Part shown: positions 39,740-62,002 of the stretch, one piece after another
Numbering within the stretch: the first letter of the stretch is position 1
How the letters are laid out: every line of letters starts with the position of its first letter
Notes under the pieces: generated by a model
What the model was told of the DNA's origin: nothing
The model's input: only the letters and a program-made list of their open reading frames with translations
The model's database searches: none
Program-made: the position numbers and the translations under genes
DNA from: Aridibaculum aurantiacum
GTDB taxonomy: Bacteria > Bacteroidota > Bacteroidia > Chitinophagales > Chitinophagaceae
Length of the DNA: 64,000 nt
Reading direction: 5' to 3'
Assembly (NCBI RefSeq): GCF_017355875.1
Contig: NZ_JAFEWC010000003.1
Location: forward strand, 129,001-193,000

Positions 39740-39915
39740 TGATGCTGTTTTAACTAACGGCTGTATTTGCTGTAGCAGTTCTAATGGCCCATTTAACTTG
39801 CCGCAATGGTACGCGTTACCAGTTCTGATAAATTAGATGCCTGTGGTTTTGCCATCTTTCAATTAATAGCTTTAAACATATTTCTTTCTAAAAAAGAACA
39901 CTATAAAGCCTTTCC

Positions 39916-39943
39916 TGCAACAAACACAACAGTTCCTGCAACA
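39916..39943 (+). promoter_or_regulatory. paired TGCAACA half-sites, putative AraC-type operator
   Basis: TGCAACA occurs at 39916-39922 and again at 39937-39943, exactly 21 bp apart, about 60 bp before the ATG at 40001. The match extends to TTCCTGCAACAA in both copies. A TAGTTTCG sequence at 39974-39981, one mismatch from the Bacteroidota -7 element TAnnTTTG, lies about 30 bp after the second copy. Similar pairs precede the genes at 46104 and 52468. Confidence 0.6.
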
Positions 39944-40000
39944 ATAGCGACAGTCTTACTTCCTCAGGCTCAATAGTTTCGTTTGTTCTAAAACTTAACG

Positions 40001-41767
40001 ATGAAGCCATTTCAGCCTTTGTTTTTGCTGCTGCTGTTTGTGCAGCTTTGCTTCACCCAAAGCGTATTTGCACAACAAAAACTGGATCATATTCTCGATA
40101 TGGTGCATCACAATCCAGGTGAGCCGCTTACTAATTCTGCGTTCACAGATCCTGCATACCTAAAAACGAACGGCTTCAATGGGCAGGTCATCAACGATTT
40201 TACTTTTGCGCATGCTGCCGTAACTTTCGATGCGCTTCAAAAAGATATTTTCCCAAAAGGAACTAAGGAGCGTACCTGGGTAGAAAATGCTGCCGCAAAA
40301 GTACGCTCGAACATTGCCAATGCGCACAAAGCTGGTATCAAAGCTTATTATTTTACTGACCTGATAGTCCTGCCAAAAAAGCTGGTGGAGGTGTATGCCG
40401 ATGAGATTTTGGATGAAAATGGCAAGATCTCGTTAGAGCGGCCAAAGACGATCGAACTTCATCGGCTGATGCTGGATGAGCTATTCCAACAATTTCCTGA
40501 GTTAGACGGGCTGGTGATACGTACCGGCGAAACTTATCTCAATAATGTACCCTTCCATACGGGTAATAATCCCATCACCAAGGGCGAACAAAGTCATATA
40601 AAACTATTACAACTTCTTAGGGATGAGGTATGTGTAAAGCGAAACAAGAAGATTTTTTACAGAACGTGGTCATTTGGGGGAATGCACGAAGAGCCTGTTT
40701 ATTATCTGAATGTGACCAAAAACGTTGACCCTCATCCTAATCTTATTTTCTCGGTTAAGCATACGAAAGGCGACTACCATCGCACCTTTGATTTCAATCC
40801 TACGCTTGCCATTGGCAATCACCCGCAGGTGGTAGAGGTGCAGTGCCAGCGTGAGTACGAAGGCAAAGGAGCCTATCCTAATTATGTAATGAATGGAGTT
40901 ATAGAAGGCTTTGAAGAATATGCAACCTCGAAACCGCAGCAAGGGAAAAAAAGCCTGCGGGATATTGCATCCAGCCCCACTTTCAAAGGTGTATGGTCGT
41001 GGTCCCGAGGCGGCGGTTGGGTAGGTCCTTATATCTCCAACGAATTCTGGTGCAAGGTAAATGCCTTTGTATTGAGCACCTGGGCCGCTGACCCGTCAAT
41101 GTCCGAAGAAAAAGCTTTTGAACAATTTATGGATAAGGCCGGCATCACAGGCAGCAGCAGGCAAGCATTCAGAAAATTGAGCCTTTTATCTGCAACAGCT
41201 GTCTTAAAAGGTCACAACAGTGCAATGCAGCAGTTTGACCCGGAGTGGGTTTGGTGGATGCGGGATGAGTTTCTCGGCGGCATCAATCCAAACACTAATG
41301 GGGCAAAATTTGACTCGGAAGGTGTTTTGTACAAAGCATTTGTTTCTTATGACAGCATGGGCTTGCTTCAAAAAGCTGTTGATGAAAAATTTGAGGCGGT
41401 AAAACTTTGGCATCAGGTTGTCAACCTAAGCAAGCAGGTAAAAATGAAAGATAAAGCCGATGAAGAATACGTGCGGCTTTCATCTAACTATGGATTGCTG
41501 CTACACAACATTATTGCAGAAGGCTGGAAGATCATGGCGATTGGTTTCCAGGGAGATAAAAACGGAAAGTATAATACCAAAGCACTGGCCGCATCCATTG
41601 CTAATTACGACAAACTGTGGCAGCAATACAGGCAATTAAAAGCAGGTAATCCACAGGTCGCTACTCTTTATAAACCCAATGCATTTGTATACGAAGCCCC
41701 TGTTTATCATAAAGAAATGGGAATGGATGCGTCAGTTAATAAGTACAGAAAATTAATAAGCAAGTAA
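40001..41767 (+). CDS. secreted protein, probable TIM-barrel glycoside hydrolase of unrecognised family
   Basis: The 588-residue protein has a signal peptide (ending QSVFAQ). Its body reads like a glycosidase barrel: AHKAGIKAYYFTDLIV, DGLVIRTGETYLNNVPFHTGN with candidate acidic residues, KKIFYRTWSFGG, EVQCQREYEGKGAYP and GVWSWSRGGGWVGPY. The C-terminal ~170 residues are helical. Some features recall alpha-glucuronidase-type families, but I cannot assign one. It lies just before the hybrid two-component regulator and its promoter has the paired TGMAACA sites, so it is probably part of the locus regulon. Confidence 0.6.
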   Translation: MKPFQPLFLLLLFVQLCFTQSVFAQQKLDHILDMVHHNPGEPLTNSAFTDPAYLKTNGFNGQVINDFTFAHAAVTFDALQKDIFPKGTKERTWVENAAAKVRSNIANAHKAGIKAYYFTDLIVLPKKLVEVYADEILDENGKISLERPKTIELHRLMLDELFQQFPELDGLVIRTGETYLNNVPFHTGNNPITKGEQSHIKLLQLLRDEVCVKRNKKIFYRTWSFGGMHEEPVYYLNVTKNVDPHPNLIFSVKHTKGDYHRTFDFNPTLAIGNHPQVVEVQCQREYEGKGAYPNYVMNGVIEGFEEYATSKPQQGKKSLRDIASSPTFKGVWSWSRGGGWVGPYISNEFWCKVNAFVLSTWAADPSMSEEKAFEQFMDKAGITGSSRQAFRKLSLLSATAVLKGHNSAMQQFDPEWVWWMRDEFLGGINPNTNGAKFDSEGVLYKAFVSYDSMGLLQKAVDEKFEAVKLWHQVVNLSKQVKMKDKADEEYVRLSSNYGLLLHNIIAEGWKIMAIGFQGDKNGKYNTKALAASIANYDKLWQQYRQLKAGNPQVATLYKPNAFVYEAPVYHKEMGMDASVNKYRKLISK

Positions 41768-41768
41768 G

Positions 41769-41864
41769 ATGCATTATCCTAAGAAAAGGCTGAAAGTATT
41801 TGTGGGCCTGGGTTATATCATCCTGGTCATCCTGATGTTTTTGTTGATTCATCTTTTTTTATAA
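41769..41864 (+). CDS. 31-residue single-helix membrane peptide
   Basis: An ATG frame starting 1 bp after the previous stop encodes MHYPKKRLKVF followed by one hydrophobic helix (VGLGYIILVILMFLLIHLFL). The basic N-terminus and helix are typical of small inner membrane peptides. It lies between the predicted hydrolase and the sensor kinase gene, 59 bp before the latter. No ribosome binding site stands out, so coding status is uncertain. Confidence 0.4.
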   Translation: MHYPKKRLKVFVGLGYIILVILMFLLIHLFL

Positions 41865-41923
41865 CATGTTGTCGCTGCGGATTCTTACCTTCCGCATCAG
41901 AAACTGTAAAGAGGAAATTGATA

Positions 41924-44900
41924 ATGAAAACAACCTGGCGAGGCTTCTGTATACGGAGTTTCTTCCTGTTGCAGTTTTTGTTGTTAGTGTTTTCAACCAC
42001 TGCCCAAAAGCTCATCAGCCCTACACCTGTATTTGAATTGTATAACAGCAGCCACGGCTTGCCAGATATACGAATACGTAACCTATTCCAGGATAGCCAG
42101 GGCTACTTGTGGGTGGGTACTATGAACGGCACCTGTCGCTACGATGGCTATAATTTCCAGCGAAACTTCTACGACAACCAGGCGCAAAATGTGCTTAATA
42201 GCTGGGCTTATGCAATAACGGAAGACGAAGAAAAGACCATCTGGTTTGGCACACGCGAGGGCATCAGCAATTACAACAGCGTTAAAGAAGAATTTGTAAC
42301 TGTAAAAGGTCTCCAGGCGCAAGATCATCCTATTTTACAAAGAGGTATTTCCACCTTACTGAACCACGATGGACACCTATATATAGGAACTCCATTGGGT
42401 CTTGCTATTTATAATAAACGTTCTAAGAAACTGCAGGTTTTTAAAAATAAGAACCTGAACGCGCCTGTCAGTAGCATAGTTTCTTCTAAAATGGGTGGCC
42501 TATGGCTGGCAACACACGAAGGTGTCATCCGGTACAATAGCAATATTTCTTCAGCATCATTTTTCCCAATAAAGCTAAAGTCAAACCCTTATGGAGACAG
42601 GATTTGGAGCCTGCTGGAAGTTGACGATCAGCTACTGATTGCTACCGCAGGCAATGGATTGTTGAAATTGCCATTATCGGCTTCTCCGGGAAAAGAGGGA
42701 AGCGCCACCCCATTTAATCGTTTTGCAGGAAGTAGTCATCAACTGGATAATGAACAGGTTTTTGATATTCGTCGTGCACCAAATGGCGATATATGGCTGG
42801 GGATGGAGCATGGTCTTGGAAAAATATCGGGTGCAAAAGGAAGTGAGCAACTAGTCATTTATCAAAACAACCCGATCAGCAACAAGAGTATCAGCAACAA
42901 CATTACCTACAAAGTAATGATTGACCGCGACAACAATCTATGGTGTGGTACGGAAGGTGGCTTAAACAAGCTGAACCTCGACATGCTGGCCTTTAATTAC
43001 CTCACATTCACAGAAAAAGATACACGCGACCAGGTGCGCGGACTGGTTTCTGCAAATGGAAATGATATATGGCTGGGCACTGCTAACCATGGTTTGTTCC
43101 TCTTCAATACATCACAGGGTACTACTAAAAAGATACCGCAGCCACACCAAAATATCCGCAGCTTAATGGTAGATGAGGGGCAGGTATGGTCAGGCCACCT
43201 GAATGGCATTACTGCAACCAATCAAACAAGCCAAAGCATAAGTAAAACTGCAGCAACTGATCATGCTGTTTTTGCCCTGCTAAAAGACAGGAAAAGAAAT
43301 ATCTGGTTGGGAACCAATAAAGGCCTGCTTCGAATAACACCAGCTGGAGATACCATTGATTATGCACAAAAACCAAGTGTAGATGCCGCCGTTCGCCGTG
43401 GTTTTGTTCGATTTGTTTATGAAGATGCAAGCAGCCGTATTTGGTTAGGTTTCGAAAATGGGGGCTGCGGCCTTTTTGATCCTAATACTGAAAAATATGC
43501 TCCTGTTATAAGCAGCAACGGCGCATCATTACCAACCACTACTTATTATGGGATAGGCGAGTATCCAACCAATACCTTTTGGCTCGGTTCTGCCACAGGG
43601 TTGGTACGTGTACAACTGCAACAGAAACAAGGAAAGCCTGTATTTGATATAAAGAATTTCAATGAACAGGATGGCTTACCCGGTCGGTCGGTAAATAGTG
43701 TTCAAGCCGATGGTGTAGGCAACCTGTGGCTGGCGACTCTCCAGGGTGTTGTGAAATTCAATACGAAGAACAACGATTTCAACCTCTACCTGCAAGGTGT
43801 GGAGTTTGGAAGTAATGCCGGCAGTAAAACAGCTGATGGTCACCTGCTAATGGGAGCCAATGATGGCTTTGTCATTTTTGATCCATTGGCTATCAAAGAA
43901 CCTGTACATGCACCAGCTGTACGATTTACCTCTCTAAAATTGCTGAACCAGGTGGTAAACGTGAAGGAGGTGTATGAAGGTGATACTGTATTGACACAAC
44001 CTCTTTCTGCTACAAAAGAGATAGAACTGAATTACAGAAACAATTTATTCACTATTGGATTTGTAGGACTTCATTTTACCAATCCGGCTGCAAATCACTA
44101 CGCTTACCGGTTGGTTGGTTTTGATAAAGACTGGATATATACAGATGCCTCCAACCGCAACATTACCTACACCAACCTGGATGCAGGTGATTATGTTTTT
44201 GAAGTAAAGGCAGCCAATAGTTCAGGTAAATGGAGCGAAAAAGCAGAAAGCCTGAAGCTGACTATTTTACCTCCACCATGGAAAACCTGGTGGGCGAAGG
44301 TGTTATACTTCCTGTTGTTCAATGCCCTCTTGTTTGGTATTATCTGGTACTTCCAGGTACAGACACGCCAGCGTAACCAGCTACGGTTTGAGCAAATGGA
44401 GAAAGCGCAGATCCGGAAGATGAACGAGATGAAGACCACTTTCTTTACCGACATCTCACACGAGTTTCGCACGCCACTTTCGCTGATCGTAAGCCCTGTG
44501 GAGGAGCTGATAACAGCGCCTGAAATAGAGGGCGAAGCAAGAACAAAACTGCGCATGATCCATAACAACTGTAAAAAGTTGTTGTCGCTGATCAACGAGC
44601 TGATGACTTTCCAGAAGATGGAGGAGGATAAACTGCAGCTATTGCCTGCGCGGCACGATGTGGTAGAATTTACCAAAGAAGTGTTTGCCAATTTTGACCT
44701 GGTGGCGCAGCGTAACAAACTCCGGTTTTTATACAGCTGCAACGTGGAGCGGCTGGTAGTTTCTATTGATAAGCCTAAGCTGGAGATCGTGCTGAACAAC
44801 CTGCTGTCAAATGCATTTAAGTTCACACCTGCCGGTGGGGAGATCCGTTTGGATGTTGAGCTACAACAGGAGCCTGCCGCTGAAACTGCTTACCTGCAAA

Positions 44901-45985
44901 TAAAGGTTTCTGATACAGGTAGAGGCATCACAGCCGAAGAACAGGCCCGGCTTTTCGAAAGATTTTTCTCGCAGAACAATAGCCATGGAACAGGTGTAGG
45001 ATTATATCTCACCAAGAAGATCGTTGAGCTTCACAATGGACAGATATCTGCTGTTAGTCAACCCGGTGTTCGTACCATATTTACCGTTACACTGCCGGTA
45101 GAGCGGGTAATACCTGAAGAGGTAGCGCAGCCAGCAGAGCCGGTCTATCAACCAGATTTTGTGACCACGGCACAGGCAGTGGTGGTAGCAGGCGAAAAAC
45201 AACACGATGCTGACCGTCCTACCATTCTGCTTGTAGAAGATAACGTAGAGGTACTAGATTACCTGGACATGCTGTTCAGCAGCGAATACAACATTATTAA
45301 GGCTGCTAATGGGGTGGTGGCGCTGCAACACCTTGAGACAGAGCAGCCAGACCTGGTGATAAGTGATGTGATGATGCCAGAGATGGACGGCATTACCTTG
45401 TGTAAGCGGATTAAAACCGCCGTCGAGACCAGCCACATACAGGTGATACTGTTAACTGCACGTGCTACCATAGATAACAAAATGGAAGGCCTGCAAACCG
45501 GTGCAGACGATTATATAGCCAAGCCTTTCCACCCGGAGGTGCTTAAGATAAAAGCACGCAACCTTATTGAAACCCGCCGTAAGCTGGTAGACAAATACAA
45601 GACCCAGCAGGAACCGCTTCCTGTTACCATTTCCGAAAACCCGCTGGATAAAGAATTCCTGGAGAACGTGCACAACGCTATTGAAGCTAATCTTGGCGAC
45701 GACAGCTTTGGTGTGGAAGAACTGGGCAAAGCTGTTTTCATGAGCCGCAGCCATTTGTTTAGAAAGATGAAAGCGCTGACGGGGCAAAACCCGCTGGATG
45801 TCATCTACGGCCTTCGACTGAAGAAAGGTATGGAGCTGCTGCTGGAGCGCCGCAGCAGCATTTCAAATATTGCTTACGAAGTAGGATTTAAGAGCCCTTC
45901 CGCTTTTTCGGCGGCGTTCAAAAAACAATATGGCAAAACGCCTTCTGAATATGTGAATGCACTTATTCAGCAGGAAAAAGCTTGA
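41924..45985 (+). CDS. hybrid two-component system sensor/regulator (HTCS) with AraC output
   Basis: The ~1353-residue protein joins a whole phosphorelay. It has a signal peptide, a periplasmic beta-propeller of Reg_prop repeats (ending in LWVGTMNG-, IWLGTA-type motifs) and a YYY domain. One transmembrane helix (WAKVLYFLLFNALLFGIIWYF) precedes a kinase domain with H846 in DISHEFRTPLSL, NNLLSNAFKFTP and GTGVGLYLTKK. A receiver follows with D1148 in VISDVMMPEMDG, then a C-terminal AraC-type helix-turn-helix (GLRLKKGMELLL, VGFKSPSAFSAAFKKQYG). HTCS proteins sense oligosaccharide in the periplasm and switch on the neighbouring locus. The ATG at 41924 has GAGGAAA upstream; a TTG at 41918 is less likely. 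Confidence 0.95.
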   Translation: MKTTWRGFCIRSFFLLQFLLLVFSTTAQKLISPTPVFELYNSSHGLPDIRIRNLFQDSQGYLWVGTMNGTCRYDGYNFQRNFYDNQAQNVLNSWAYAITEDEEKTIWFGTREGISNYNSVKEEFVTVKGLQAQDHPILQRGISTLLNHDGHLYIGTPLGLAIYNKRSKKLQVFKNKNLNAPVSSIVSSKMGGLWLATHEGVIRYNSNISSASFFPIKLKSNPYGDRIWSLLEVDDQLLIATAGNGLLKLPLSASPGKEGSATPFNRFAGSSHQLDNEQVFDIRRAPNGDIWLGMEHGLGKISGAKGSEQLVIYQNNPISNKSISNNITYKVMIDRDNNLWCGTEGGLNKLNLDMLAFNYLTFTEKDTRDQVRGLVSANGNDIWLGTANHGLFLFNTSQGTTKKIPQPHQNIRSLMVDEGQVWSGHLNGITATNQTSQSISKTAATDHAVFALLKDRKRNIWLGTNKGLLRITPAGDTIDYAQKPSVDAAVRRGFVRFVYEDASSRIWLGFENGGCGLFDPNTEKYAPVISSNGASLPTTTYYGIGEYPTNTFWLGSATGLVRVQLQQKQGKPVFDIKNFNEQDGLPGRSVNSVQADGVGNLWLATLQGVVKFNTKNNDFNLYLQGVEFGSNAGSKTADGHLLMGANDGFVIFDPLAIKEPVHAPAVRFTSLKLLNQVVNVKEVYEGDTVLTQPLSATKEIELNYRNNLFTIGFVGLHFTNPAANHYAYRLVGFDKDWIYTDASNRNITYTNLDAGDYVFEVKAANSSGKWSEKAESLKLTILPPPWKTWWAKVLYFLLFNALLFGIIWYFQVQTRQRNQLRFEQMEKAQIRKMNEMKTTFFTDISHEFRTPLSLIVSPVEELITAPEIEGEARTKLRMIHNNCKKLLSLINELMTFQKMEEDKLQLLPARHDVVEFTKEVFANFDLVAQRNKLRFLYSCNVERLVVSIDKPKLEIVLNNLLSNAFKFTPAGGEIRLDVELQQEPAAETAYLQIKVSDTGRGITAEEQARLFERFFSQNNSHGTGVGLYLTKKIVELHNGQISAVSQPGVRTIFTVTLPVERVIPEEVAQPAEPVYQPDFVTTAQAVVVAGEKQHDADRPTILLVEDNVEVLDYLDMLFSSEYNIIKAANGVVALQHLETEQPDLVISDVMMPEMDGITLCKRIKTAVETSHIQVILLTARATIDNKMEGLQTGADDYIAKPFHPEVLKIKARNLIETRRKLVDKYKTQQEPLPVTISENPLDKEFLENVHNAIEANLGDDSFGVEELGKAVFMSRSHLFRKMKALTGQNPLDVIYGLRLKKGMELLLERRSSISNIAYEVGFKSPSAFSAAFKKQYGKTPSEYVNALIQQEKA

Positions 45986-46007
45986 TCATCATTAAAAACA
46001 TCCAATC

Positions 46008-46035
46008 TGAAACAAAATAGGGGTCATCTGCAACA
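46008..46035 (+). promoter_or_regulatory. paired TGMAACA half-sites before the beta-helix/GH3/esterase genes
   Basis: TGAAACA at 46008-46014 and TGCAACA at 46029-46035 are exactly 21 bp apart. The similarity is wider: ATCTGAAACAAAATAGGG and ATCTGCAACAAAAAGGG. The ATG of the next gene is about 70 bp downstream. The layout matches the pairs at 39916 and 52172. Confidence 0.6.
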
Positions 46036-46103
46036 AAAAGGGAGCTGCCAGTAACCTCAGAAGTCGATTTTGCAGATGAATTACAACACGATCACGATTT
46101 GCT

Positions 46104-48335
46104 ATGCCTTCTGCTAAACCATACCTGCTTCTTTTACTGCTGATGCCGCTCTTTGGGCTGGCGCAGGTAAATATTACCTGCTATGTGTCGGCCACCGGTA
46201 GCGATAAGAACAATGGCAGCATCAACCAACCTTTTGCAACAGTAGAAAAAGCCATTGCTCATATAAAGCAGCAAAAGCCAGCCGCAACGAAGGCTAACAT
46301 TATAATCAGGCAGGGCACCTACTGGTTGAAAAAATCTATTGAAGTTCCTGCTGCAGGTTTTGCACCACATCTTACCATCAAAGCTTACAATGGCGAAAAA
46401 GTAACGCTTACAGTTGCCACGCCATTACCTGCTGCACAATGGAAGCCACTTAGCAAGCAGGTTTATGCACGTTTGCATCCTTCCGTAGATGGGCGAAAGC
46501 TGTTAGAATTTGATGTTTCTAAACTTACAAACGAGCGGCTAAAAAGATTTTCTCCAGATCCTTCTTTTATGGAAGCCTGGCCTTCAATTGATCTGTACGC
46601 AAACCAAAAGCGGCAGCCAATAGCGCAGTGGCCTAATGAGCAGGAGCAACTTCGTAAACAAAATGAAACAGGCTGGGCAACCTATAACGGAGCTAAAAAT
46701 AACACCACGTTTTTATATGCAGCAGGTGGTAGACCTGAAGATAAGGACACTACAAATGAACTGGAACTGGATGGTACCAACCGCGCCACCCGTTGGATGA
46801 ACGCCTTGAACACTGGCCATGAGATCTGGCTGAAAGGCTTTTGGCGTGTGCCCTGGGGGCCTATCACCAGCAAAGTGAAGCAGATGGATAATACTTCCAT
46901 TGAGCTGGTAGAGCAACCGCGTGATGGAATGGGTTCTAAATATTCTAAAATTGCCAGCACTAGTCCATTGTGGCGTGTAGGTTCTGGTATAGAAAAATGG
47001 AAACTCATCAATGCATTGGAAGAGATAGACCAGCCAGGAGAATGGGCACTGGATGTAAAAGATCAGAAAATCTATTACTACCCATCTATTACAGCTAAGG
47101 CTTTATCAGTAGAAATTGTGGCTGATACGATGCCGGTTTTTCATTTTAAGGATGCCAGCAACATCAGCATCGAAGGGCTTACCATCAGGGGAGCACTTTC
47201 GCAAGCTGTGCGTTTAGAAGATTGCAGCAACATAACGATAGCTGGTTGTACTATTTTCAATACAGGTGGAGCAGGCATCTATGCCCGCGGCGGTATCAAC
47301 AACACCATCACCAGCAATACCATTTACGAAACAGGCGCGGCAGGCATTGTAATGGAAGACCAAGGAGATCGGAAGAAATTGATTGTCTCAAACAGCACCA
47401 TTCACAACAACCATATTTATAACATTGGCAAGCTTACGTTTAGCGAAAGCATCCAGCTGGCAAACAGTGTAGGTGTGAAAGTAAGTAACAACCTGCTGCA
47501 CGATCTGCCGAAGAGTGCTATCCGTACCGATCTAATCAACAACTGCATTTTTGAGTTTAACGAGATACACAATATTGCCCTGCAGGAAGCTGACAATGGT
47601 GCCTTTTACAACTATGGCGGCTGGTCAACCTATGGCAACGTTTTTCGCTTCAATTTTATACACCACATAAACCGCAGCAATGGCTTGTACTGCGATGATG
47701 GTGATAGCGGCGACATGTTTTACAACAACATTGTGCACGATGCTATAGAAGCCATCAAATTTGGCGGAGGCCATGATAACATTGCCCGGAACAATCTAAT
47801 CATCAACAGCAAGAGCCAGAACATTGATGACCGTGGTATAAATCGCAACTACAAGCTGAACACGCCTTATGAAGCACGACTGCAAGAGATGAAGCCGTAC
47901 GAAGAGCCATGGAAATCGTACGGTGAGCAACTAAAGCAGCAGTATGAGGTAACGCATCACTTGTGGAAGGATATTCTAAAGGAAGATTGGAAGCCGGAGT
48001 ATCCAAACGGAAGCAAGATGATACATAATGTAACCGTAGCAAGTGGACCTTTTGTAGCTCCTGAAAAAGGTGCGGTAACAGTGGAAGGAAACCTCCAGCT
48101 TCCTTCTATTGCCGATGCTGGTTTTTACAACTATGCATTGCTGGATCTGCGAACGGATAATGCAGCGATCTTGGAAAAGCTGCCTTCACTCAACACGTTT
48201 TTCCTTCAGATAGGATTGCAAAAAGATCAATACCGGCAACAACTTCCTACACGTAAAGAAACAGGAGGATTGACCAACCGGCTTCGCGCCGGCAACCTGG
48301 CCAACGAAGACCAGTTTATAGAGAAAAAGCAATAG
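46104..48335 (+). CDS. secreted right-handed parallel beta-helix protein (GH141-like carbohydrate-active enzyme)
   Basis: The 743-residue protein has a signal peptide (ending FGLAQ) and opens with CYVSATGSDKNNGSINQPFATVEKAI, the start common to beta-helix enzymes. A folded insert carries DLYANQKRQPIAQWPNE. Many helix coils follow (NISIEGLTIRG, NITIAGCTIFNTGGAGIYAR, NTITSNTIYETGAAGIV) and a conserved GLYCDDGDSGDMFYNNIVHD...GGHDNIARNNL segment. The layout resembles GH141 enzymes and some polysaccharide lyases; the assignment is tentative. It is first of a co-directed set with GH3 and esterase genes. Confidence 0.8.
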   Translation: MPSAKPYLLLLLLMPLFGLAQVNITCYVSATGSDKNNGSINQPFATVEKAIAHIKQQKPAATKANIIIRQGTYWLKKSIEVPAAGFAPHLTIKAYNGEKVTLTVATPLPAAQWKPLSKQVYARLHPSVDGRKLLEFDVSKLTNERLKRFSPDPSFMEAWPSIDLYANQKRQPIAQWPNEQEQLRKQNETGWATYNGAKNNTTFLYAAGGRPEDKDTTNELELDGTNRATRWMNALNTGHEIWLKGFWRVPWGPITSKVKQMDNTSIELVEQPRDGMGSKYSKIASTSPLWRVGSGIEKWKLINALEEIDQPGEWALDVKDQKIYYYPSITAKALSVEIVADTMPVFHFKDASNISIEGLTIRGALSQAVRLEDCSNITIAGCTIFNTGGAGIYARGGINNTITSNTIYETGAAGIVMEDQGDRKKLIVSNSTIHNNHIYNIGKLTFSESIQLANSVGVKVSNNLLHDLPKSAIRTDLINNCIFEFNEIHNIALQEADNGAFYNYGGWSTYGNVFRFNFIHHINRSNGLYCDDGDSGDMFYNNIVHDAIEAIKFGGGHDNIARNNLIINSKSQNIDDRGINRNYKLNTPYEARLQEMKPYEEPWKSYGEQLKQQYEVTHHLWKDILKEDWKPEYPNGSKMIHNVTVASGPFVAPEKGAVTVEGNLQLPSIADAGFYNYALLDLRTDNAAILEKLPSLNTFFLQIGLQKDQYRQQLPTRKETGGLTNRLRAGNLANEDQFIEKKQ

Positions 48336-48383
48336 GTATCCTGTAACCACACGCTAATACGCCATAAAAAAAACGAACTGAAA

Positions 48384-50144
48384 ATGAAACGACCTTTTTT
48401 ACTAATGCTATCACTATGCCTTGTAGTTACAGGCACACGTGTTAGTGCACAATACGATGCAGGTGCCGACGGCTGGAAAAAGCTGTCGCTCCGCGAAAAG
48501 ATAGGCCAGACTATGCTGATGCTTCCTGACAACAAGAAGGAGCTGGAGCTGGGCGGCGGCTCGTTGCAAGGCTTCTTTAAGCGCTATCCAGTCACTGGTT
48601 TTTTCATGGGCTGGAAGTTGTTTGTAGGAGTAAAAGAAGAAAATAAAGTAGCGCACCTTCGCAAGTCGGTTCATACGTACCAGCAAGCCAGCAGGATGCC
48701 GCTGTTATTTCAGCAGGATTATGAAAATGGTATTGCCTTACCGGGCATGACTACTCTGCCACGCGAAATGGCTTTAGGCGCCGCTAACTCTACCGACCTG
48801 ATGTATAAATATGGAAAGAGTTTGGCCAGTGAAGCAAGATCATTGGGTATAGAATGGGTGCTGCACCCGGTGGCTGATCTAAACATCAACCCAATGAACC
48901 CGATCGTAAACGTGCGTGGCATTTCTGACGATCCGGACAAAGCCATCAGGCTGTTGAGTAAGCAAATAAAGGGACTGCAGGATAATGGCGTTGCTGCTAC
49001 AATCAAGCACTTTCCTGGTGATGGTGCCGACTACCGCGACCAGCACCTTACTACCAGCACCAACAATCTTACATGGGATGAATGGAATAAGTATCACGGG
49101 AAAGTTTTCCAAGCATTAATTGACAGTGGTGTGGCTTCTATTATGCCAGGTCATATCACTTTGCCTTCCTATCAAAAAGAGAAGATCAACGGTTTTTATC
49201 CTCCGGCTACTTTATCAAAAGAACTGCTGACAGATCTTTTGAAAAAGAAGATGGGTTTTGATGGAGTCATTGTTTCTGATGCAATGACAATGGGTGGATT
49301 TAGAGGCTGGTACAACAACCAGCTGGAAGGCGAAGTAGCCAGTTTTGCAGCAGGCGTTGATGTTTTGCTGTGGCCTTCATACGAGTTCATGGATACTTTG
49401 GAAGCACGCATCAGGCGCAACGAAATACCGATGGAAAGGCTGGATGATGCAGTAAGCCGCATCTGGAAAATGAAGAGCCGCTTTGGGCTGCTAAAACCAA
49501 ATCGCGTCTTGGTAAAAGACATGACCGATGCGGAAAAAGCATTCTCTCGTGAAACTGCAAAAAATATTTGCGAAAGCGCTGTTACCCTTGTGCGAGACAG
49601 GGAGAATATGCTGCCATTGAACCCACAGAAAACAAAGAAAATATTGATCGTAGGCGTTACACCACAAAGCAGGAAAGGTGGAGATGGTGGATTGGCAGCA
49701 TTGAAATCACTTCAGCAGGAGTTGGGAAATAAAGGTTTTGAAGTTGATTTTCAACACGACCTGCTTTACGAGAACCAGGGATGGGAAGAGCATGTTTCTG
49801 CGAAATACGATAAGATCATTTTTGCTTTTGTACGTATACCACATGCACCTTTTGGTCCGTTGCAATTGTGGGACGACCAGGCGCAAACGGCGTGGGCCAT
49901 CAATTCGATGCCTAAAGACAAGGTGATGGTGATTTCTTTTGGCAGTCCATACCTCGCAAATGAATATTTTGAGCGGGTAAATACTTGTATCAATGCATAT
50001 TCTAATAACCCGGAAATGCATGCAGCGGTGGTGCGGGTGATGATGGGTGAGATACCTGCAAGAGGTACTTCTCCTGTAGACCTGGGCAACGATGCGCTGC
50101 ACAAGTACAAGTTTATTAACACCAGCGACCCTTACAAGCCTTAA
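48384..50144 (+). CDS. secreted glycoside hydrolase family 3
   Basis: The 586-residue protein has a signal peptide (ending TRVSAQ) and the two GH3 domains. The barrel carries TIKHFPGDGADYRDQH, the KHFPG(D/H)G motif of beta-N-acetylhexosaminidase-like members, and GVIVSDAMTMGGF with the nucleophile Asp. The C-terminal alpha/beta domain follows from about residue 390. The motif set favours the NagZ-like branch over beta-glucosidases, but the substrate is not certain. It is 48 bp after the beta-helix gene and 3 bp before the esterase gene. Confidence 0.9.
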   Translation: MKRPFLLMLSLCLVVTGTRVSAQYDAGADGWKKLSLREKIGQTMLMLPDNKKELELGGGSLQGFFKRYPVTGFFMGWKLFVGVKEENKVAHLRKSVHTYQQASRMPLLFQQDYENGIALPGMTTLPREMALGAANSTDLMYKYGKSLASEARSLGIEWVLHPVADLNINPMNPIVNVRGISDDPDKAIRLLSKQIKGLQDNGVAATIKHFPGDGADYRDQHLTTSTNNLTWDEWNKYHGKVFQALIDSGVASIMPGHITLPSYQKEKINGFYPPATLSKELLTDLLKKKMGFDGVIVSDAMTMGGFRGWYNNQLEGEVASFAAGVDVLLWPSYEFMDTLEARIRRNEIPMERLDDAVSRIWKMKSRFGLLKPNRVLVKDMTDAEKAFSRETAKNICESAVTLVRDRENMLPLNPQKTKKILIVGVTPQSRKGGDGGLAALKSLQQELGNKGFEVDFQHDLLYENQGWEEHVSAKYDKIIFAFVRIPHAPFGPLQLWDDQAQTAWAINSMPKDKVMVISFGSPYLANEYFERVNTCINAYSNNPEMHAAVVRVMMGEIPARGTSPVDLGNDALHKYKFINTSDPYKP

Positions 50145-50147
50145 AAG

Positions 50148-52136
50148 ATGACCAGGTTTCTCTTTATCTGCCTACTTTTTTTGCAGCATTCACTGCATGC
50201 GCAGGTGCGCCTGCCAAAGTATTATGCAGATCATATGATACTGCAGCGCGACCGGCCGATGCCGATAATAGGTTGGGCTGCGCCGGGAAATACAATAGAG
50301 GTTTCTTTCAATAACAAAAGTTATAAAGCGACTGCAACTGCTGACAGTTCGTGGAAAGCAGTGTTGCCTAAGACAAAAGCAGGCGGGCCTTATACCATCA
50401 GTGTTTCAGCAAATGGAGTAACTAAAACCTTTTCTGATGTGTACTTTGGCGATGTATGGTTGTGCGGCGGGCAAAGCAATATGAACTATCGCATGCGCAC
50501 CATTAAGAACCGGGATGAAGAATTGAAAGATGCAGATTACCCACTGATACGCCAACTGAACATTGACCAGGTAGCTGCTGAATATCCACAGCAGGACATT
50601 GTTAAAGGGCAGTGGGTGCCGGCGAGCAGCAAAACCATAGATGCTTTTACTGCGGTAGGTTTTCAGTTTGCCAAAGAAGTATACAAGCACGAGAAGGTGC
50701 CGATCGGTATCATTCATGCATCGTGGGGTGGCTCGCCTATACAGGCGTGGATGAGTGCAGCCGACCTGCAGGATTTCCCTAATGAAATAAAGAAGATCAA
50801 TAGAATTCACCCGGGTTTTATTGCTGCGCAACGCAAGCAGGATAGCATCAACCTGGTTCAATGGGAGAAGAATATTTATGCTGCGTCGGCTTTTGTGTCT
50901 CCTGCTAAACAATTGCAAAAGGATCCTTCCTTTTTTGCAGATGCGGGTTGGAAGCAGATTGTAGTTCCAGGTTACCTGCAAGACCAGGACATAAAAGTGA
51001 AGAAAGGGATAAGCTGGTTTAAGAGAAACTTCCATGTTGAGCCAGCTTTTCTGCAAGACACTATTGCGGCTAATTTCGGTCGCATCAATTTTGCCAGCGC
51101 GTTCTTCATCAATGGCAACTATATTGGCTCGCAGCTAAATCCTTACTACAACGCCAGCTTCAAGTTTCCTGCACAATACCTGCACGCTGGCGACAATGAG
51201 ATCATTGTCTTGTGTTTCAACGAAAGTGAGAGCACAGGTTTTCGTCCTGTTTCCAAACCACACCTAAGATCAGGAGCCAGCCAGGTAGAACTAAGCGGTA
51301 ACTGGCTTTTCAGGCAAGGAAAAACTTTTGATACTGCCGGCGCTATGGGACCAATGAATGCTGTGGATTTTGTGAATTCATATCCTACGCTTGCTTTTAA
51401 TGCTATGATACATCCGCTGCGGCAGTACCCTGTAAAAGGTTTTTTGTGGTACCAGGGTGAAGGAAATACAGGTGCAGAAGAAAGTATGCTGTATGAAAAC
51501 ATGCTTACGCGCCTCATTGGCCGCTGGCGCCAAATGTGGGGCAATGACAAACTGCCTTTCCTAATGGTGCAGATTTCCAGCTATGGTGCTGTAAAAAAAG
51601 AACCTGTAGCTACAGGCTGGCCGGTAGTGCAGGAAGCGCAGGCAAATATTGCGCGTACAATTCCTAATACCGGCATTGCTATCACCAACGATGTAGGCAA
51701 TGCCATAGATGTACACCCCGATGACAAGCAAACGGTTGGTAAAAGATTAGCTGCTGTGGCGCTCAATAAAGTTTATGGTCACAAAAAAATGGTTGCTGCC
51801 GGTCCTACCTACCACCAGATGGAGATCAAAGACGGCAAAGCGATCTTGTCTTTCAAGAACATTGGTTCGGGGATAGTTTCGAAAACCGGAACAGGCAGCC
51901 TCCGCTCTTTTGCAATAGCGGGTGCTGATAATAGGTTTTACAGGGCCGAAGCGGTAATTAGCGGCAACAAAGTAATCGTCAGCAGCAATAAAGTGCCTGC
52001 GCCTTTACATGTTCGTTATGCCTTTGAGAATACACCACCAGCTTTTGACTTTTATAATAAAGAAGGATTTCCGGCTGTGCCTTTTCGCACCGACAAGTTG
52101 CAGGACTTCCTCGTAAAAAAATCTGATGAACAATAG
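50148..52136 (+). CDS. sialate O-acetylesterase-type SGNH esterase
   Basis: The 662-residue protein has a signal peptide (ending HSLHAQ). Its SASA esterase domain has the nucleophile Ser in VWLCGGQSNMNYR, HASWGGSPIQAW, WYQGEGNTGAEES and the Asp-x-x-His dyad in NAIDVHPDDKQTVG. Between about residues 245 and 375 sits an inserted beta-sandwich, like the sugar-binding domain of beta-galactosidases. Such enzymes remove O-acetyl groups from sialic acids or from plant polysaccharides. It follows the GH3 gene by 3 bp, so the two should be co-translated. Confidence 0.9.
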   Translation: MTRFLFICLLFLQHSLHAQVRLPKYYADHMILQRDRPMPIIGWAAPGNTIEVSFNNKSYKATATADSSWKAVLPKTKAGGPYTISVSANGVTKTFSDVYFGDVWLCGGQSNMNYRMRTIKNRDEELKDADYPLIRQLNIDQVAAEYPQQDIVKGQWVPASSKTIDAFTAVGFQFAKEVYKHEKVPIGIIHASWGGSPIQAWMSAADLQDFPNEIKKINRIHPGFIAAQRKQDSINLVQWEKNIYAASAFVSPAKQLQKDPSFFADAGWKQIVVPGYLQDQDIKVKKGISWFKRNFHVEPAFLQDTIAANFGRINFASAFFINGNYIGSQLNPYYNASFKFPAQYLHAGDNEIIVLCFNESESTGFRPVSKPHLRSGASQVELSGNWLFRQGKTFDTAGAMGPMNAVDFVNSYPTLAFNAMIHPLRQYPVKGFLWYQGEGNTGAEESMLYENMLTRLIGRWRQMWGNDKLPFLMVQISSYGAVKKEPVATGWPVVQEAQANIARTIPNTGIAITNDVGNAIDVHPDDKQTVGKRLAAVALNKVYGHKKMVAAGPTYHQMEIKDGKAILSFKNIGSGIVSKTGTGSLRSFAIAGADNRFYRAEAVISGNKVIVSSNKVPAPLHVRYAFENTPPAFDFYNKEGFPAVPFRTDKLQDFLVKKSDEQ

Positions 52137-52171
52137 CTAATCAGCTGAAAAATAGCTGTTGTAGCCGAAAA

Positions 52172-52199
52172 TGAAACATTTTAAAAGGTAGATGCAACA
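52172..52199 (+). promoter_or_regulatory. paired TGMAACA half-sites before susC
   Basis: TGAAACA at 52172-52178 and TGCAACA at 52193-52199 lie exactly 21 bp apart, each inside ATGMAACAT. They are 269 bp upstream of the susC ATG at 52468, farther than the other two pairs are from their genes, which implies a long mRNA leader. Confidence 0.55.
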
Positions 52200-52467
52200 T
52201 AACAACACCTCTTTTTTTGGATTTGAGACCACTTTAGTGCTCGGATTGCCAAACAAAACAAACTTCTAATTCTAACGATTATGCCAGTTTCCATTTACCC
52301 TTTGGGTACATTATCCTCCTCCCGGGCCTGCTACAGGCTTCAAGCTTTACCCACTCCAGGAAAGGCAGGAAACAACTTCCCATTTCCAATAAAAAGATTT
52401 TCCTGTTAATACACCTAAACAAACCTTATCACCGGGTATGCCGGCTAATGATCTAAACAACTGCTGT
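52200..52467 (+). other. long 5' leader of susC
   Basis: About 240 nt between the putative promoter and the susC start hold no convincing gene. A 42-codon frame from 52281 exists but has no protein-like character. Short hairpins are possible, for example TACCC/GGGTA at 52299-52311 and GCCTG/CAGGC near 52326. A leader of this length could allow post-transcriptional control, but no known riboswitch was recognised. Confidence 0.35.
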
Positions 52468-53211
52468 ATGAAAAAACTCAATGCACGTGGACGAATACTC
52501 AACAGAGTTGCCATTCTTCTACAACCAAACATGCTCTTAAAGGTCTTACTACTCATCCTGGTAGTAGCACCAGTATTTTCTTTTGCCCAACTGCAATCTG
52601 TGGCAGGTATTGTAAGAGACGAAGATGGTAAGCCAGTAAGTGGCGTTTCCGTAACTGTTAAGTCTGCCAACCGCGGAACTTCTACTGATGAAACCGGTAG
52701 ATACACACTGGAACTAAGGGATCCACGGGCTGTACTTGTATTTAGTAATGTAGGATATGAAGCTCGTGAAGTAAGTGTTGCCGGGAAAGCAGTTGTAGAC
52801 GTAGTGCTGAAACGGACACTATCTTCTTTGGATGACGTGGTAGTAGTGGGTTACGGTACTACCAAAAGAAGAGACCTGATAGGCTCTGTTGGTAAAGCCA
52901 ACGTAGAAGATATGAAGAAGGCGCCGGTGCCTTCGTTCGACCAGATGCTGGCAGGTAGAATAGCGGGTGTTACCGTGAGCCCTGTAGATGGACAGCCAGG
53001 TGGTGCTGCTTCTATATCTATAAGAGGAAGTTCAGTAAGCCAGGAAACTTCGCCATTATTTGTAATTGATGGTTTTCCTGTAGAGAACATGGACATTAAT
53101 TCCATCAATCCAAACGATATTGAATCTTTTGAAGTACTGAAAGATCCTTCTTCAATAGCTATCTATGGTTCAAGAGGTGGTAACGGTGTTATCCTCATCA
53201 CTACTAAATAA
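52468..53211 (+). CDS. SusC-type TonB-dependent receptor, N-terminal part before in-frame stop
   Basis: This 247-residue frame holds a signal peptide (ending SFAQ), the carboxypeptidase-regulatory-like domain (VAGIVRDEDGKPVSGVSVTV), the SusC signature LDDVVVVGYGTTKRRDLIGSV as TonB box region, and the plug domain up to IYGSRGGNGVILITTK. It then stops at TAA (53209-53211), exactly where SusC proteins continue as TTKKGK. The next frame continues in the same phase. On its own this fragment could not form a transporter. An upstream in-frame ATG at 52438 is less likely as start. Confidence 0.8.
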   Translation: MKKLNARGRILNRVAILLQPNMLLKVLLLILVVAPVFSFAQLQSVAGIVRDEDGKPVSGVSVTVKSANRGTSTDETGRYTLELRDPRAVLVFSNVGYEAREVSVAGKAVVDVVLKRTLSSLDDVVVVGYGTTKRRDLIGSVGKANVEDMKKAPVPSFDQMLAGRIAGVTVSPVDGQPGGAASISIRGSSVSQETSPLFVIDGFPVENMDINSINPNDIESFEVLKDPSSIAIYGSRGGNGVILITTK

Positions 53212-53277
53212 GGTAAGGCCGGTCCTCCAAAGCTTTCTTACAACTTTTCTTATGGTATCCAAAAAGATATCAGGCGT

Positions 53278-55842
53278 GTGAAAATGATGAACGCTTACGA
53301 GTTTGTAAAGCTTCAGTTGGAGCTGGATAGCCTGGCAGGTACTGCTGGTGTTCCTAGCCGTCGCTTTCATGATATCTATTTAGATCCTGCAAAAGGAATA
53401 GACCTAGAGTCGTATAGAACAGCTAAAACACTTGACTGGCAGGATATGCTGTTGCAGACAGGTGCAGTACAAATACATTCCGTTTCTCTTTCTGGTGGAA
53501 ATGCAGACACGCGATATTCTTTATCCGGTGGATTTTACAACCAGAGAGGCATCATCCTGAACACAGGCATGAAGCGTTATGATGGTCGTTTCTCACTTGA
53601 TCAGAAACTAGGTAAGAACCTGAGAGGTGGTGTAAGTGCAAGTTTCTCCAGCACGCCTGCTTATGGTACTGTAGCTGCTACTACCAATAATGGTGGCGTG
53701 GTGCAGGGCATGTGGCAGTACAGGCCAACCACTGGTTTGTCAAACCAGGATGTTGCCAATAACCTTTTTGATAGTACGGCAATGCTAGAGTTTTACAACG
53801 GTAACTCTTCAGTGTCATTGGGCGACAACCTGATCAACCCGCTAAAGCAGGCTGAAAATGAACATAGAAAAACAACTACCAATACTGGTTTTGTAAATGC
53901 TTACCTGGATTATGCATTCCTACGGAAGTTTAGGGTAAGATTGACAGGTGGATACAATTCAACCACTGTTTCGCTTGAGCAATTTTATAACTCGCAAACA
54001 CAACAAGGTAACTTGTTTAAAAACGCTGCAGGAGCTACACCTAATACTGCTGGTATCAATGGTTCCATAGCTACTTCACTTGCGCAATCTTATTCTACAT
54101 CCAATACCATTACTTACAACAATACTTTTAGTAAGAACCATAATGTAGATGGGCTTGCAGGTTTTGAATACCAGTACGCACAGCAGCAGTCTACTTCACT
54201 TCGTTCTGTAAATATTCCACAGGCGAGTGAATACCTGGGTATACTGGCGCTTGGTTCTGGTACACCTGCACAGGCATCAAGAGGTCGTACACATAACCAA
54301 ACTGCATCCTTCTTCGGAAGAGTGAACTATAACTTTGCCCGTAAATATTACCTGACTGGTGCGTTACGTACAGATGGTTCATCTCGCTTTGCAGCAGGCA
54401 ACCAGTGGGGTTACTTCCCATCGGGTGGTGCAGCATGGACTTTCTCTGAAGAGAAATTCATGCAAAAGCTAAAGCCAATCATCAGTTATGCAAAGCTGCG
54501 CGTGAGCTATGGTAGCACCGGTAACAACCGTGTAGGTGATTTTAGTTACTCTGCCCAGTTAACAGGTATCACCAACAACTCTGGCTATGCCTGGAATAAT
54601 GTAGCTGTAGGTGGTATCATGCCTTTCTTCTATGGCAACAGCGCCCTTACATGGGAGAAAACAACTGGTTTTGATTATGGATTGAACCTGGAATTCCTTC
54701 AAGGAAGAATATCAGTAGACGCTGTTTATTACAGGAAAAAGACCACAGACTTCCTGATGGGTGTAAGGCTGCCTTTCAGTGCAGGTTATCCTAATGGAGC
54801 AAACTCTCAATATCAAAATACAGGAGCTATTGCAAATAATGGTTTCGAGTTTACGCTTAACACCACCAATGTAAAAACAAAGAACTTTAGCTGGAATTCA
54901 AACTTCAATATCAGCACTAACAGGAGCCAGATACTTGACTTCTACAGTGGATTGGAATCTATACAAACAGCATGGGGTCTTTCTGGTAATGCAAACGCAT
55001 GGATAAGTAAAGTAGGCGGACCATTATCACAGTTCTATGGCTTCCAATGGGGCGGTGTTTACCAGTTCAGCGATTTTGATCAACTGGCCAACGGTAACTA
55101 CCAGGTGAAGCCAAATGTTCCTACTTATTCAGCCAATGTTCGCCCGGGCGATCCTAAATATGTAGACCTTAATAATGATGGTGTGGTAGATGCAAACGAT
55201 CGTACAACTTTGGGTAGTCCACTGCCTATTCATACTGGTGGTTTCTCTAACAACTTCACGTATAAGAACTGGTCGCTAAATGTATTTGCACAATGGAGCT
55301 ATGGTAACGAAATACTGAACGCCAACAGGGTAGTTTTTGAAAGCACTGGAGGTTATAATTTGAACTTCAATCAATTTGCTTCTTATGCTAATCGTTGGAC
55401 ACCAAATAATCCTACCAATGATATTCCTGCGGCTCGTTTCAATATGAAAGGTGATGTAGGAAGTGCTAGTCCAAGAGTTTCTTCACGGATAATAGAAGAT
55501 GGTTCTTTCTTAAGATTGAAAACAGTTTCATTGGGATATAATCTGCCAGCTTCAGCGCTTAAGAAGATCCACATGTCAAACTTAAGATTACATGTGTCTG
55601 CTCAAAACCTGCTGACATTAACCAGGTATACAGGACAAGATCCGGAGGTGAATACTTACCGCGCATCAAACCCAGCCAACTCTCCATTCGGAGGAACGTT
55701 TGTAGGTAGTTCAACCAGTGGTGGTGCAGGCTACACCTTTGTTCAGCCAAGTAGTGGATATACAGCATTGGCCGGTGGATACGATTATACACCTTATCCA
55801 AGAGCATTTGTACTAACGTTTGGCCTAAATGCTAACTTCTAA
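53278..55842 (+). CDS. SusC-type TonB-dependent receptor, C-terminal beta-barrel part
   Basis: The 854-residue frame holds the outer membrane beta-barrel of a SusC protein (SLSGGNADTRYSLSGGFYNQRG, GALRTDGSSRFAAGNQWGYFPSGGAAW, NNDGVVDANDRTTLGSP, final strand FVLTFGLNANF). It lacks any signal peptide. The frame is already open from 53212, directly after the TAA, and begins with GKAGPPKLSYNFSYG; 53278 is a GTG with no ribosome binding site. It is therefore the continuation of the frame at 52468 rather than a separate gene. Confidence 0.8.
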   Translation: MKMMNAYEFVKLQLELDSLAGTAGVPSRRFHDIYLDPAKGIDLESYRTAKTLDWQDMLLQTGAVQIHSVSLSGGNADTRYSLSGGFYNQRGIILNTGMKRYDGRFSLDQKLGKNLRGGVSASFSSTPAYGTVAATTNNGGVVQGMWQYRPTTGLSNQDVANNLFDSTAMLEFYNGNSSVSLGDNLINPLKQAENEHRKTTTNTGFVNAYLDYAFLRKFRVRLTGGYNSTTVSLEQFYNSQTQQGNLFKNAAGATPNTAGINGSIATSLAQSYSTSNTITYNNTFSKNHNVDGLAGFEYQYAQQQSTSLRSVNIPQASEYLGILALGSGTPAQASRGRTHNQTASFFGRVNYNFARKYYLTGALRTDGSSRFAAGNQWGYFPSGGAAWTFSEEKFMQKLKPIISYAKLRVSYGSTGNNRVGDFSYSAQLTGITNNSGYAWNNVAVGGIMPFFYGNSALTWEKTTGFDYGLNLEFLQGRISVDAVYYRKKTTDFLMGVRLPFSAGYPNGANSQYQNTGAIANNGFEFTLNTTNVKTKNFSWNSNFNISTNRSQILDFYSGLESIQTAWGLSGNANAWISKVGGPLSQFYGFQWGGVYQFSDFDQLANGNYQVKPNVPTYSANVRPGDPKYVDLNNDGVVDANDRTTLGSPLPIHTGGFSNNFTYKNWSLNVFAQWSYGNEILNANRVVFESTGGYNLNFNQFASYANRWTPNNPTNDIPAARFNMKGDVGSASPRVSSRIIEDGSFLRLKTVSLGYNLPASALKKIHMSNLRLHVSAQNLLTLTRYTGQDPEVNTYRASNPANSPFGGTFVGSSTSGGAGYTFVQPSSGYTALAGGYDYTPYPRAFVLTFGLNANF

Positions 55843-55861
55843 TCTTCTAACAATTATCGCC

Positions 55862-61983: not shown

Positions 61984-62002
61984 ATTGGCTGAACAAAATC
62001 AC

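What the first reader, a model, noticed from the sequence alone, without database searches (positions are those of the whole stretch)
39916..52199. Three promoters share TGMAACA half-sites exactly 21 bp apart: a putative HTCS regulon
Pairs occur at 39916/39937, 46008/46029 and 52172/52193, upstream of the predicted hydrolase, the beta-helix/GH3/esterase set and susC. All six half-sites contain TGMAACA followed by A or T. The 21-bp step equals two DNA turns, the spacing seen for AraC's adjacent direct half-sites, and the HTCS gene at 41924 encodes an AraC-type output domain in the same locus. A 7-mer with one twofold position is expected about once per 8 kb per strand at equal base use, so three pairs at one exact spacing, each in an intergenic region, are unlikely by chance. 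I infer this is the operator of this regulator. I did not scan the whole window exhaustively.
Basis: partly seen in the sequence, partly recalled or inferred. Interest (0 to 1): 0.75.

Follow-up and report, generated by a model that had tools for sequence, protein, structure and literature searches.

The report
Sugar-sensor operator repeated before three operons
A DNA signature made of two copies of TGMAACA spaced 21 bases apart sits in front of three neighbouring gene groups for sugar breakdown and very probably is where the local sugar-sensing regulator binds; it is a new example of a known type of genetic switch.

Summary
TGMAACAW-N13-TGMAACAW occurs three times in the window and three times in the whole 4.86-Mb genome, each time intergenic, upstream of the three gene groups of one polysaccharide utilization locus (PUL). 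Without the final A/T there are three more exact genomic pairs, all inside ORFs. Shuffles and random promoter triples almost never reproduce it (0 of 1000; 1 of 2000). In three of three syntenic loci of a related genus, whose hybrid two-component regulator (HTCS) has a 57%-identical DNA-binding domain, the susC promoter carries TGRCACAT-N13-TGCAACAT. A -7-like word lies 36-38 bp after the proximal half-site start. In 100 other HTCS loci, intergenic TGNNACA pairs peak at 21 bp (19 rows); 9 of 19 have TTTG at +41/+42. Best reading: the operator of this HTCS, an AraC-type activator bound beside RNA polymerase. HTCS operators as direct repeats averaging 21 bp apart were already predicted in Bacteroides (PMC3878776, passages), so this is a new member of a known kind; the operator-to-promoter geometry may be less documented. 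Binding and activation are inferred, not shown.

The parts
39916..39944 (+). Operator 1: TGCAACAA-N13-TGCAACAA, upstream of the 40001 gene / HTCS group
   Evidence: exact match, intergenic
39974..39981 (+). Putative -7 element TAGTTTCG (consensus TAnnTTTG), 37 bp after the proximal half-site start
   Evidence: sequence; consensus from PMC7366714 (passage)
40001..41767 (+). 588-aa protein of unknown family with homologues in the related genus
   Evidence: no Pfam, NCBIfam or PDB hit; homologues
41769..41864 (+). 31-aa hydrophobic ORF between the 40001 gene and HTCS
   Evidence: translation; reality as a gene untested
41918..45985 (+). HTCS: Reg_prop sensor, Y_Y_Y, HisKA, HATPase_c, response receiver, AraC-type HTH_18 (alternative ATG start 41924)
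46008..46036 (+). Operator 2: TGAAACAA-N13-TGCAACAA, upstream of the beta-helix/GH3/esterase group
   Evidence: exact match, intergenic
46065..46072 (+). Putative -7 element CGATTTTG (offset 36)
   Evidence: sequence
46104..48335 (+). Right-handed beta-helix protein with GH141 insertion-domain match
   Evidence: PDB 9rx2 parallel beta-helix repeat protein, E 3.5e-19
48384..50144 (+). GH3 glycoside hydrolase
50148..52136 (+). SASA-type carbohydrate esterase with GH2 sugar-binding domain
52172..52200 (+). Operator 3: TGAAACAT-N13-TGCAACAT, upstream of susC
   Evidence: exact match, intergenic; a 21-bp pair is kept in 3 of 3 syntenic loci
52230..52237 (+). Putative weak -7 element CACTTTAG (offset 37); TTTG words also lie nearer the operator
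   Evidence: sequence
52438..55842 (+). SusC-type TonB-dependent transporter gene with one in-frame stop at 53209-53211
55829..57775 (+). SusD
57801..58835 (+). DUF5017 protein
58942..61983 (+). Beta-helix / weak GH28 protein with type IX secretion tail
61985..62653 (+). GDSL esterase/lipase

Best explanation
The three pairs are the operator of the HTCS encoded at 41918-45985. Inferred mechanism: an oligosaccharide binds the periplasmic propeller domain; the kinase phosphorylates the fused receiver; the AraC-type domains, as a dimer, bind two head-to-tail half-sites two helical turns apart on one face of the DNA. The proximal half-site (TGCAACAW in all three) starts 36-37 bp upstream of a weak -7-like element, so the protein would cover the region normally used as the -33 element and recruit RNA polymerase (class II-like activation). 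One operator precedes each of three groups: the 40001 gene plus HTCS (positive autoregulation), beta-helix/GH3/esterase, and susC-susD-DUF5017-beta-helix-GDSL, so the locus would be induced together. Shown: sequence, uniqueness in the genome, intergenic position, a conserved 21-bp pair at orthologous susC promoters, co-occurrence with the same type of DNA-binding domain. Inferred: binding, dimer geometry, activation, operon limits.
For: 3 W pairs in the genome, all in this PUL. 0 of 1000 shuffles and 1 of 2000 real promoter triples reach the observed repeat. 3 of 3 syntenic loci (G229, G341, G313; HTCS 44% identical overall, DNA-binding domain 57%) carry TGRCACAT-N13-TGCAACAT before susC; in an unguided 4-sequence alignment TGCAACAT is the longest fully invariant block. 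A further pair in G229 (TGAACTAA-N13-TGCAACAT) precedes a 2980-aa ORF, with a consensus -7 box TAACTTTG at offset 38. Recognition helices of window and orthologues are similar (MSRS[H/N]LFRK; GFKSPS[A/S]F). In 80 other HTCS loci TGNNACA pairs occur 17 times at 21 bp and 0-6 times at each other spacing from 10 to 35; in 20 HTCS loci of the same family 2 at 21 bp; in 20 random regions of the same genomes 0. In those 100 loci 9 of 19 pair rows have TTTG at +41/+42 (7 at +41); unpaired sites have TTTG at +41 in 13 of 358, against a mean of 3.9 per offset. Literature: 16 predicted HTCS motifs are direct repeats, average 21 bp (PMC3878776, passages).
Against: No binding or expression data. In the orthologues the distal half has 1-2 differences from TGMAACA, and at up to 2 mismatches no pair precedes their HTCS or 40001-gene homologue. 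The relaxed pattern gave 15 rows in 204 kb, 9 of them in ORFs, against 4 in the reversed control; it had been loosened after two of the three susC promoters were seen. In ten stretches with other 40001-gene homologues, some cut by contig ends, no intergenic pair was found at up to 2 mismatches. Five HTCS paralogues with 55-60% similar DNA-binding domains but other neighbours (G276, G366, G388, G079, G166) have no convincing pair in the stretches fetched: only a 2-mismatch intergenic match in G366, a TGCGACA pair in G079 and a tandem array in G276. The window's -7 words are imperfect (TAGTTTCG, CGATTTTG, CACTTTAG). 121 of 294 family genomes hold at least one W pair. A crude test of any 7-mer repeated at 21 bp was NOT specific: 22 in random regions against 14 in HTCS loci, 18 of the 22 in one genome.
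Confidence: 0.88

Rival explanations
1. The pairs are operators of another AraC-family or HTCS regulator encoded elsewhere in the genome, and the local HTCS uses a different, unseen site.
For: Half-sites of the TGNNACA type occur beside other HTCSs with different recognition helices, and this genome has further matches to the DNA-binding domain and to the whole HTCS.
Against: All three genomic W pairs are in the one PUL that holds this HTCS, and in the related genus a pair is found where the same HTCS type and PUL are kept.
Confidence: 0.07
2. The HTCS binds the pairs but represses, or mainly poises, transcription.
For: BT2391 of B. thetaiotaomicron, an HTCS with a deviating interdomain motif, is reported to repress its PUL (PMC11253607, passage). 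The window HTCS also deviates (SHIQ instead of SHIP; the 8 homologues of the related genus have SHIP or SHVP).
Against: The sites lie upstream of, not over, the -7-like words, the usual place of an activator; PUL HTCSs are mostly known as activators (general knowledge).
Confidence: 0.08
3. Chance similarity of three promoters, picked after the fact.
For: The motif was chosen by eye; TGMAACA words are common, and 43 one-mismatch pairs exist in the genome.
Against: 0 of 1000 shuffles, 1 of 2000 real triples, whole-genome uniqueness of the W pair, and a 21-bp pair in 3 of 3 orthologous susC promoters.
Confidence: 0.01
4. The pairs are remnants of a dispersed or tandem 21-bp repeat element rather than operators.
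For: About 21-bp tandem arrays exist between genes of the related genus, including just upstream of the orthologous susC, and 21-bp repeats are common in some family genomes.
Against: At each window site only the 7-8-bp ends repeat, the 13-bp spacers differ between sites, there are two copies, and the genome holds no other W pair.
Confidence: 0.02

Closest known systems
Predicted HTCS regulons of Bacteroides (Ravcheev et al. 2013, PMC3878776; passages seen)
   Same: HTCS with AraC-type output; operators are head-to-tail direct repeats with an average 21 bp between sites; located before PUL operons.
   Different: Different family (Chitinophagaceae, inferred), different regulon; their motif logos were not available here, so half-sites were not compared; the passages seen give no operator-to-promoter distance.
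BT4124 and BT4663 of B. thetaiotaomicron, shown by EMSA to bind bt4114 and bt4662 promoters (PMC11253607, passages)
   Same: Same domain order; binding to the promoter of the susCD homologues of the own PUL.
   Different: There the binding is experimental; their sites were not compared here. The window HTCS has SHIQ where most have S/CHIP.
E. coli AraC at araI1-I2 (recalled, no call)
   Same: Direct half-sites 21 bp apart, the proximal one next to the RNA polymerase site.
   Different: AraC is a soluble arabinose sensor that also loops DNA; no looping evidence here.

Membership tests
HTCS regulator | Periplasmic sensor, histidine kinase, receiver and AraC-type DNA-binding domain in one chain | tested here: met
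   Pfam Reg_prop, Y_Y_Y, HisKA, HATPase_c, Response_reg, HTH_18 in one 1355-aa ORF
HTCS regulator | S/CHIP motif in the receiver alpha3-beta4 loop (common, not universal) | tested here: not met
   SHIQ in the window; 8 of 8 homologues of the related genus have SHIP or SHVP. The source reports HTCSs without the full motif, so it does not exclude membership
HTCS-regulated PUL | HTCS gene next to susC/susD and carbohydrate enzymes | tested here: met
HTCS operator as described for Bacteroides | Direct repeat, about 21 bp between half-sites, upstream of the PUL operons | tested here: met
   3 sites, each 21 bp
HTCS operator as described for Bacteroides | Conserved at promoters of orthologous loci | tested here: met
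   3 of 3 syntenic susC promoters; the other two window promoters have no counterpart pair in those loci
HTCS operator as described for Bacteroides | Bound by the cognate HTCS | not testable with these tools
   needs EMSA, footprint or ChIP
Class II-type activator site | Fixed position just upstream of the promoter core | tested here: inconclusive
   -7-like words at offset 36-38 in 7 of 7 sites (3 window, 3 orthologous susC, 1 further G229), most of them imperfect; 9 of 19 pair rows in other HTCS loci support a fixed distance

The most novel reading that the evidence does not exclude
Many HTCS promoters across Bacteroidota follow one rigid grammar, TGNNACA-N14-TGNNACA-N34-TTTG: the operator is locked to the -7 element at one distance and replaces the -33 contact, while the two N bases are read by helix residues that differ between HTCSs. 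Some regulators at TGCAACA-type sites share a non-tyrosine residue in the second recognition helix (SPSAF, SPSSF, NPANF, SPAAF, SPASF), but L215, L117 and L125, whose pairs also end in TGCAACAT, have tyrosine there, so this code is only a lead. If the grammar holds, HTCS regulons could be predicted from sequence alone.
Probability: 0.4. Interest if true: 0.6.

Novelty: new member of a known kind. Interest (0 to 1): 0.4.

Why it matters
The HTCS operators met in the papers seen here are from Bacteroides. This locus gives a testable operator with three targets, an orthologous control and a predicted promoter geometry. If the geometry holds generally, the regulons of a very large family of sugar sensors could be read from genome sequence.

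Tried and rejected
Crude repeat test: any 7-mer repeated at lag 21 or 22 between genes of 80 HTCS loci looked enriched (39 and 43, against 2 to 24 at other lags from 9 to 60), but 21-22-bp tandem arrays inflate it. With arrays dropped the 80 loci still gave 30 and 27, yet a matched control of 20 random regions showed the same lag-21 peak (22, against 14 in 20 HTCS loci of the same genomes; 18 of the 22 from one genome, G018). I therefore rely only on the TGNNACA test. Some of the 19 rows count one place on both strands (L087, L125): about 16 distinct places. The +41 rule was first noticed in some of the same loci (listing: L110, L129, L130, L132), so those are not independent; L221 is from the second set, and L099 and the three L108 sites appeared later in the first set.

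The full-grammar pattern gave 48 matches against 19 for the reversed control in 294 family genomes (counted by hand from its table). The reversed control differs in word composition, so this is weak. 30 of the 48 came as loci: 13 sites intergenic, 5 of these next to an HTCS-like gene (L254, L261, L272, L275, L280; L275 known only by its propeller part; in G016 = L280 the kinase and the regulator are two ORFs); 17 in ORFs, none next to an HTCS, one (L264) with a receiver-domain hit. The window's own genome has no match to this strict pattern, because its -7 words are imperfect or shifted.

The useful relatives came from the DNA-binding-domain search in 394 family genomes. The function of the 40001 gene was not found. 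No structure prediction was run.

Literature: the listings (some capped, for example 20 of 2,025 and 10 of 16) showed no paper on a fixed HTCS operator-to-promoter distance. Only passages of PMC3878776, PMC11253607, PMC12125979, PMC7366714, PMC11501099, PMC5061871 and PMC6874557 were seen, no whole text. PMC5061871 lists a supplementary figure that marks predicted HTCS sites and -7 boxes together for arabinan promoters (legend only), so the relation may be visible there.
Full report
OBSERVATION. TGMAACAW-N13-TGMAACAW occurs at 39916, 46008 and 52172 on the + strand and nowhere else on either strand of the window. In the whole genome (4,856,584 bp; window = C3:129001-193000) these are the only three. 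Dropping the last A/T adds three exact genomic pairs, all inside ORFs; 43 further pairs have one mismatch and were not placed. Each window pair lies in an intergenic region: 39740-40000, 45986-46103 and 52137-52437. The proximal half is TGCAACAW in all three; the distal half is TGCAACAA, TGAAACAA and TGAAACAT. Single W pairs are not rare elsewhere: 121 of 294 family genomes have at least one.

CHANCE. Because the motif was chosen after looking, I asked how often three sequences share any direct repeat of that quality (six 8-mers, at least 6 invariant columns, at least 3 letters, lag 8-40). Shuffled promoters: 0 of 1000. Real promoter regions from the window's first 38 kb and from 14 of 20 random family regions: 1 of 2000 triples (the 6 regions of repeat-rich genome G018 left out).

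SETTING. The genes from 40001 to 62653 form one PUL on the + strand: a 588-aa protein of unknown family, the HTCS, a beta-helix protein, GH3, a SASA esterase, susC, susD, DUF5017, a second beta-helix protein with a type IX secretion tail, and a GDSL esterase. Upstream lie molybdenum-cofactor genes. The three operators divide the PUL into three groups: the 40001 gene with HTCS, the three enzymes, and the susC group. The family is Chitinophagaceae by inference: a contig of family genome G268 has the same length as a Terrimonas contig.

RELATIVES. No close HTCS orthologue turned up at first. Searching with the DNA-binding domain in 394 family genomes found 8 genomes of one other genus at 55-60% identity, the next genomes at 50% or less. 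Three of them (G229, G341, G313) hold a syntenic PUL susC-susD-DUF5017-HTCS-40001 homologue (G229's susC, on a separately fetched stretch, checked). All three carry TGRCACAT-N13-TGCAACAT before susC. Aligned without guidance, TGCAACAT is the longest invariant block between the window and the three. G229 has a further pair before a 2980-aa ORF without Pfam match. Against: the relaxed pattern was loosened after two of these promoters had been seen, and gave 15 rows in 204 kb (6 intergenic, 9 in ORFs) against 4 in the reversed control. The other five genomes' HTCS paralogues have different neighbours and no convincing pair in the stretches fetched. Ten stretches with other 40001-gene homologues have no intergenic pair at up to 2 mismatches. 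In the three syntenic loci the HTCS and the 40001 homologue have no pair of their own.

GEOMETRY. The Bacteroidetes -7 consensus is TAnnTTTG (PMC7366714, passage). Counting from the T of the proximal TGCAACA, an 8-mer resembling it begins at 37 in window site 1 (TAGTTTCG), 36 in site 2 (CGATTTTG), 37 in site 3 (CACTTTAG), 37 in the three orthologues (TAAATTCG) and 38 in the further G229 site (TAACTTTG). Most of these are imperfect, and alternatives exist (for example CATTTTTG 8 bp further on in the orthologues). As an outside check I used the 80 HTCS loci and 20 family HTCS loci. Intergenic TGNNACA pairs: 17 at 21 bp and 0-6 at any other spacing from 10 to 35 bp in the 80; 2 at 21 bp in the 20; 0 at 21 bp in 20 random regions of the same genomes. 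Of the 19 rows (about 16 distinct places), TTTG begins at +41 in 7 and +42 in 2; two other TTTG words occur from 0 to 60; 10 rows lack TTTG at that place. Unpaired TGNNACA sites have TTTG at +41 in 13 of 358, against a mean of 3.9 per offset. A Prevotella locus (L108) has three such operators in one HTCS locus, the same layout as the window. The crude lag-21 test without the TGNNACA requirement failed its control.

MECHANISM. The simplest reading is an AraC-type dimer on two half-sites on one DNA face, with the proximal subunit beside RNA polymerase, activating all three groups and, through operator 1, probably its own gene. Shown: sequence, position, conservation, and the geometry in about half of the comparable pairs of other loci. 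Inferred: binding, activation, ligand, autoregulation. Substrate is open; GH3, beta-helix and esterase genes point to an acetylated plant glycan (inference). The in-frame stop in susC leaves open whether the PUL works in this strain.

KNOWN OR NEW. Ravcheev et al. 2013 predicted 16 HTCS motifs in Bacteroides, all direct repeats, average step 21 bp, and proposed dimers two helix turns apart (PMC3878776, passages). EMSA evidence for HTCS fragments at susCD promoters exists (PMC11253607, passages; PMC5061871, passages). The window therefore adds a new regulon in another family. The operator-to-promoter distance is the less documented part, as far as the listings and passages seen go. A link of a non-tyrosine residue in the second recognition helix with TGCAACA-type sites is a lead only: 5 examples for it and 3 against (L215, L117, L125).

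Noticed in passing
window 53209-53211: susC has a single in-frame stop (ILITTK*GKAG); the orthologous G341 ORF is uninterrupted. Either a sequencing error or a broken transporter.
   Followed up: partly
window 40001-41767: 588-aa protein with no Pfam, NCBIfam or PDB match, yet 58-65% identical near-full-length homologues in a related genus (10 of 13 genomes have some match), in several different loci.
   Followed up: partly
window 41769-41864: 31-aa hydrophobic ORF starting 1 bp after the 40001 gene and ending 53 bp before the HTCS ORF.
   Followed up: no
window 41918-45985 (receiver domain): SHIQ replaces the conserved SHIP motif that is linked to inhibition of DNA binding in HTCSs.
   Followed up: partly
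L165 about 3340-3470 and 10250-10490; L167 about 1-125: Tandem arrays of about 21-bp units upstream of the orthologous susC and HTCS genes, unlike the operator in sequence.
   Followed up: no
L164 1-8940 (-): 2980-aa ORF with no Pfam match, preceded by an operator-like pair and a consensus -7 box.
   Followed up: partly
L108 2856, 5543, 9841 (-): Three TGNNACA pairs in one Prevotella HTCS locus, each with TTTG at +41.
   Followed up: partly
L252, L263, L273: TGTTACA/TGTAACA (L252, L263) and TGTCACA/TGTGACA (L273) mirrored sites with a third copy before TTTG; no HTCS hit within the 1.5-kb flanks. Likely another regulator.
   Followed up: no
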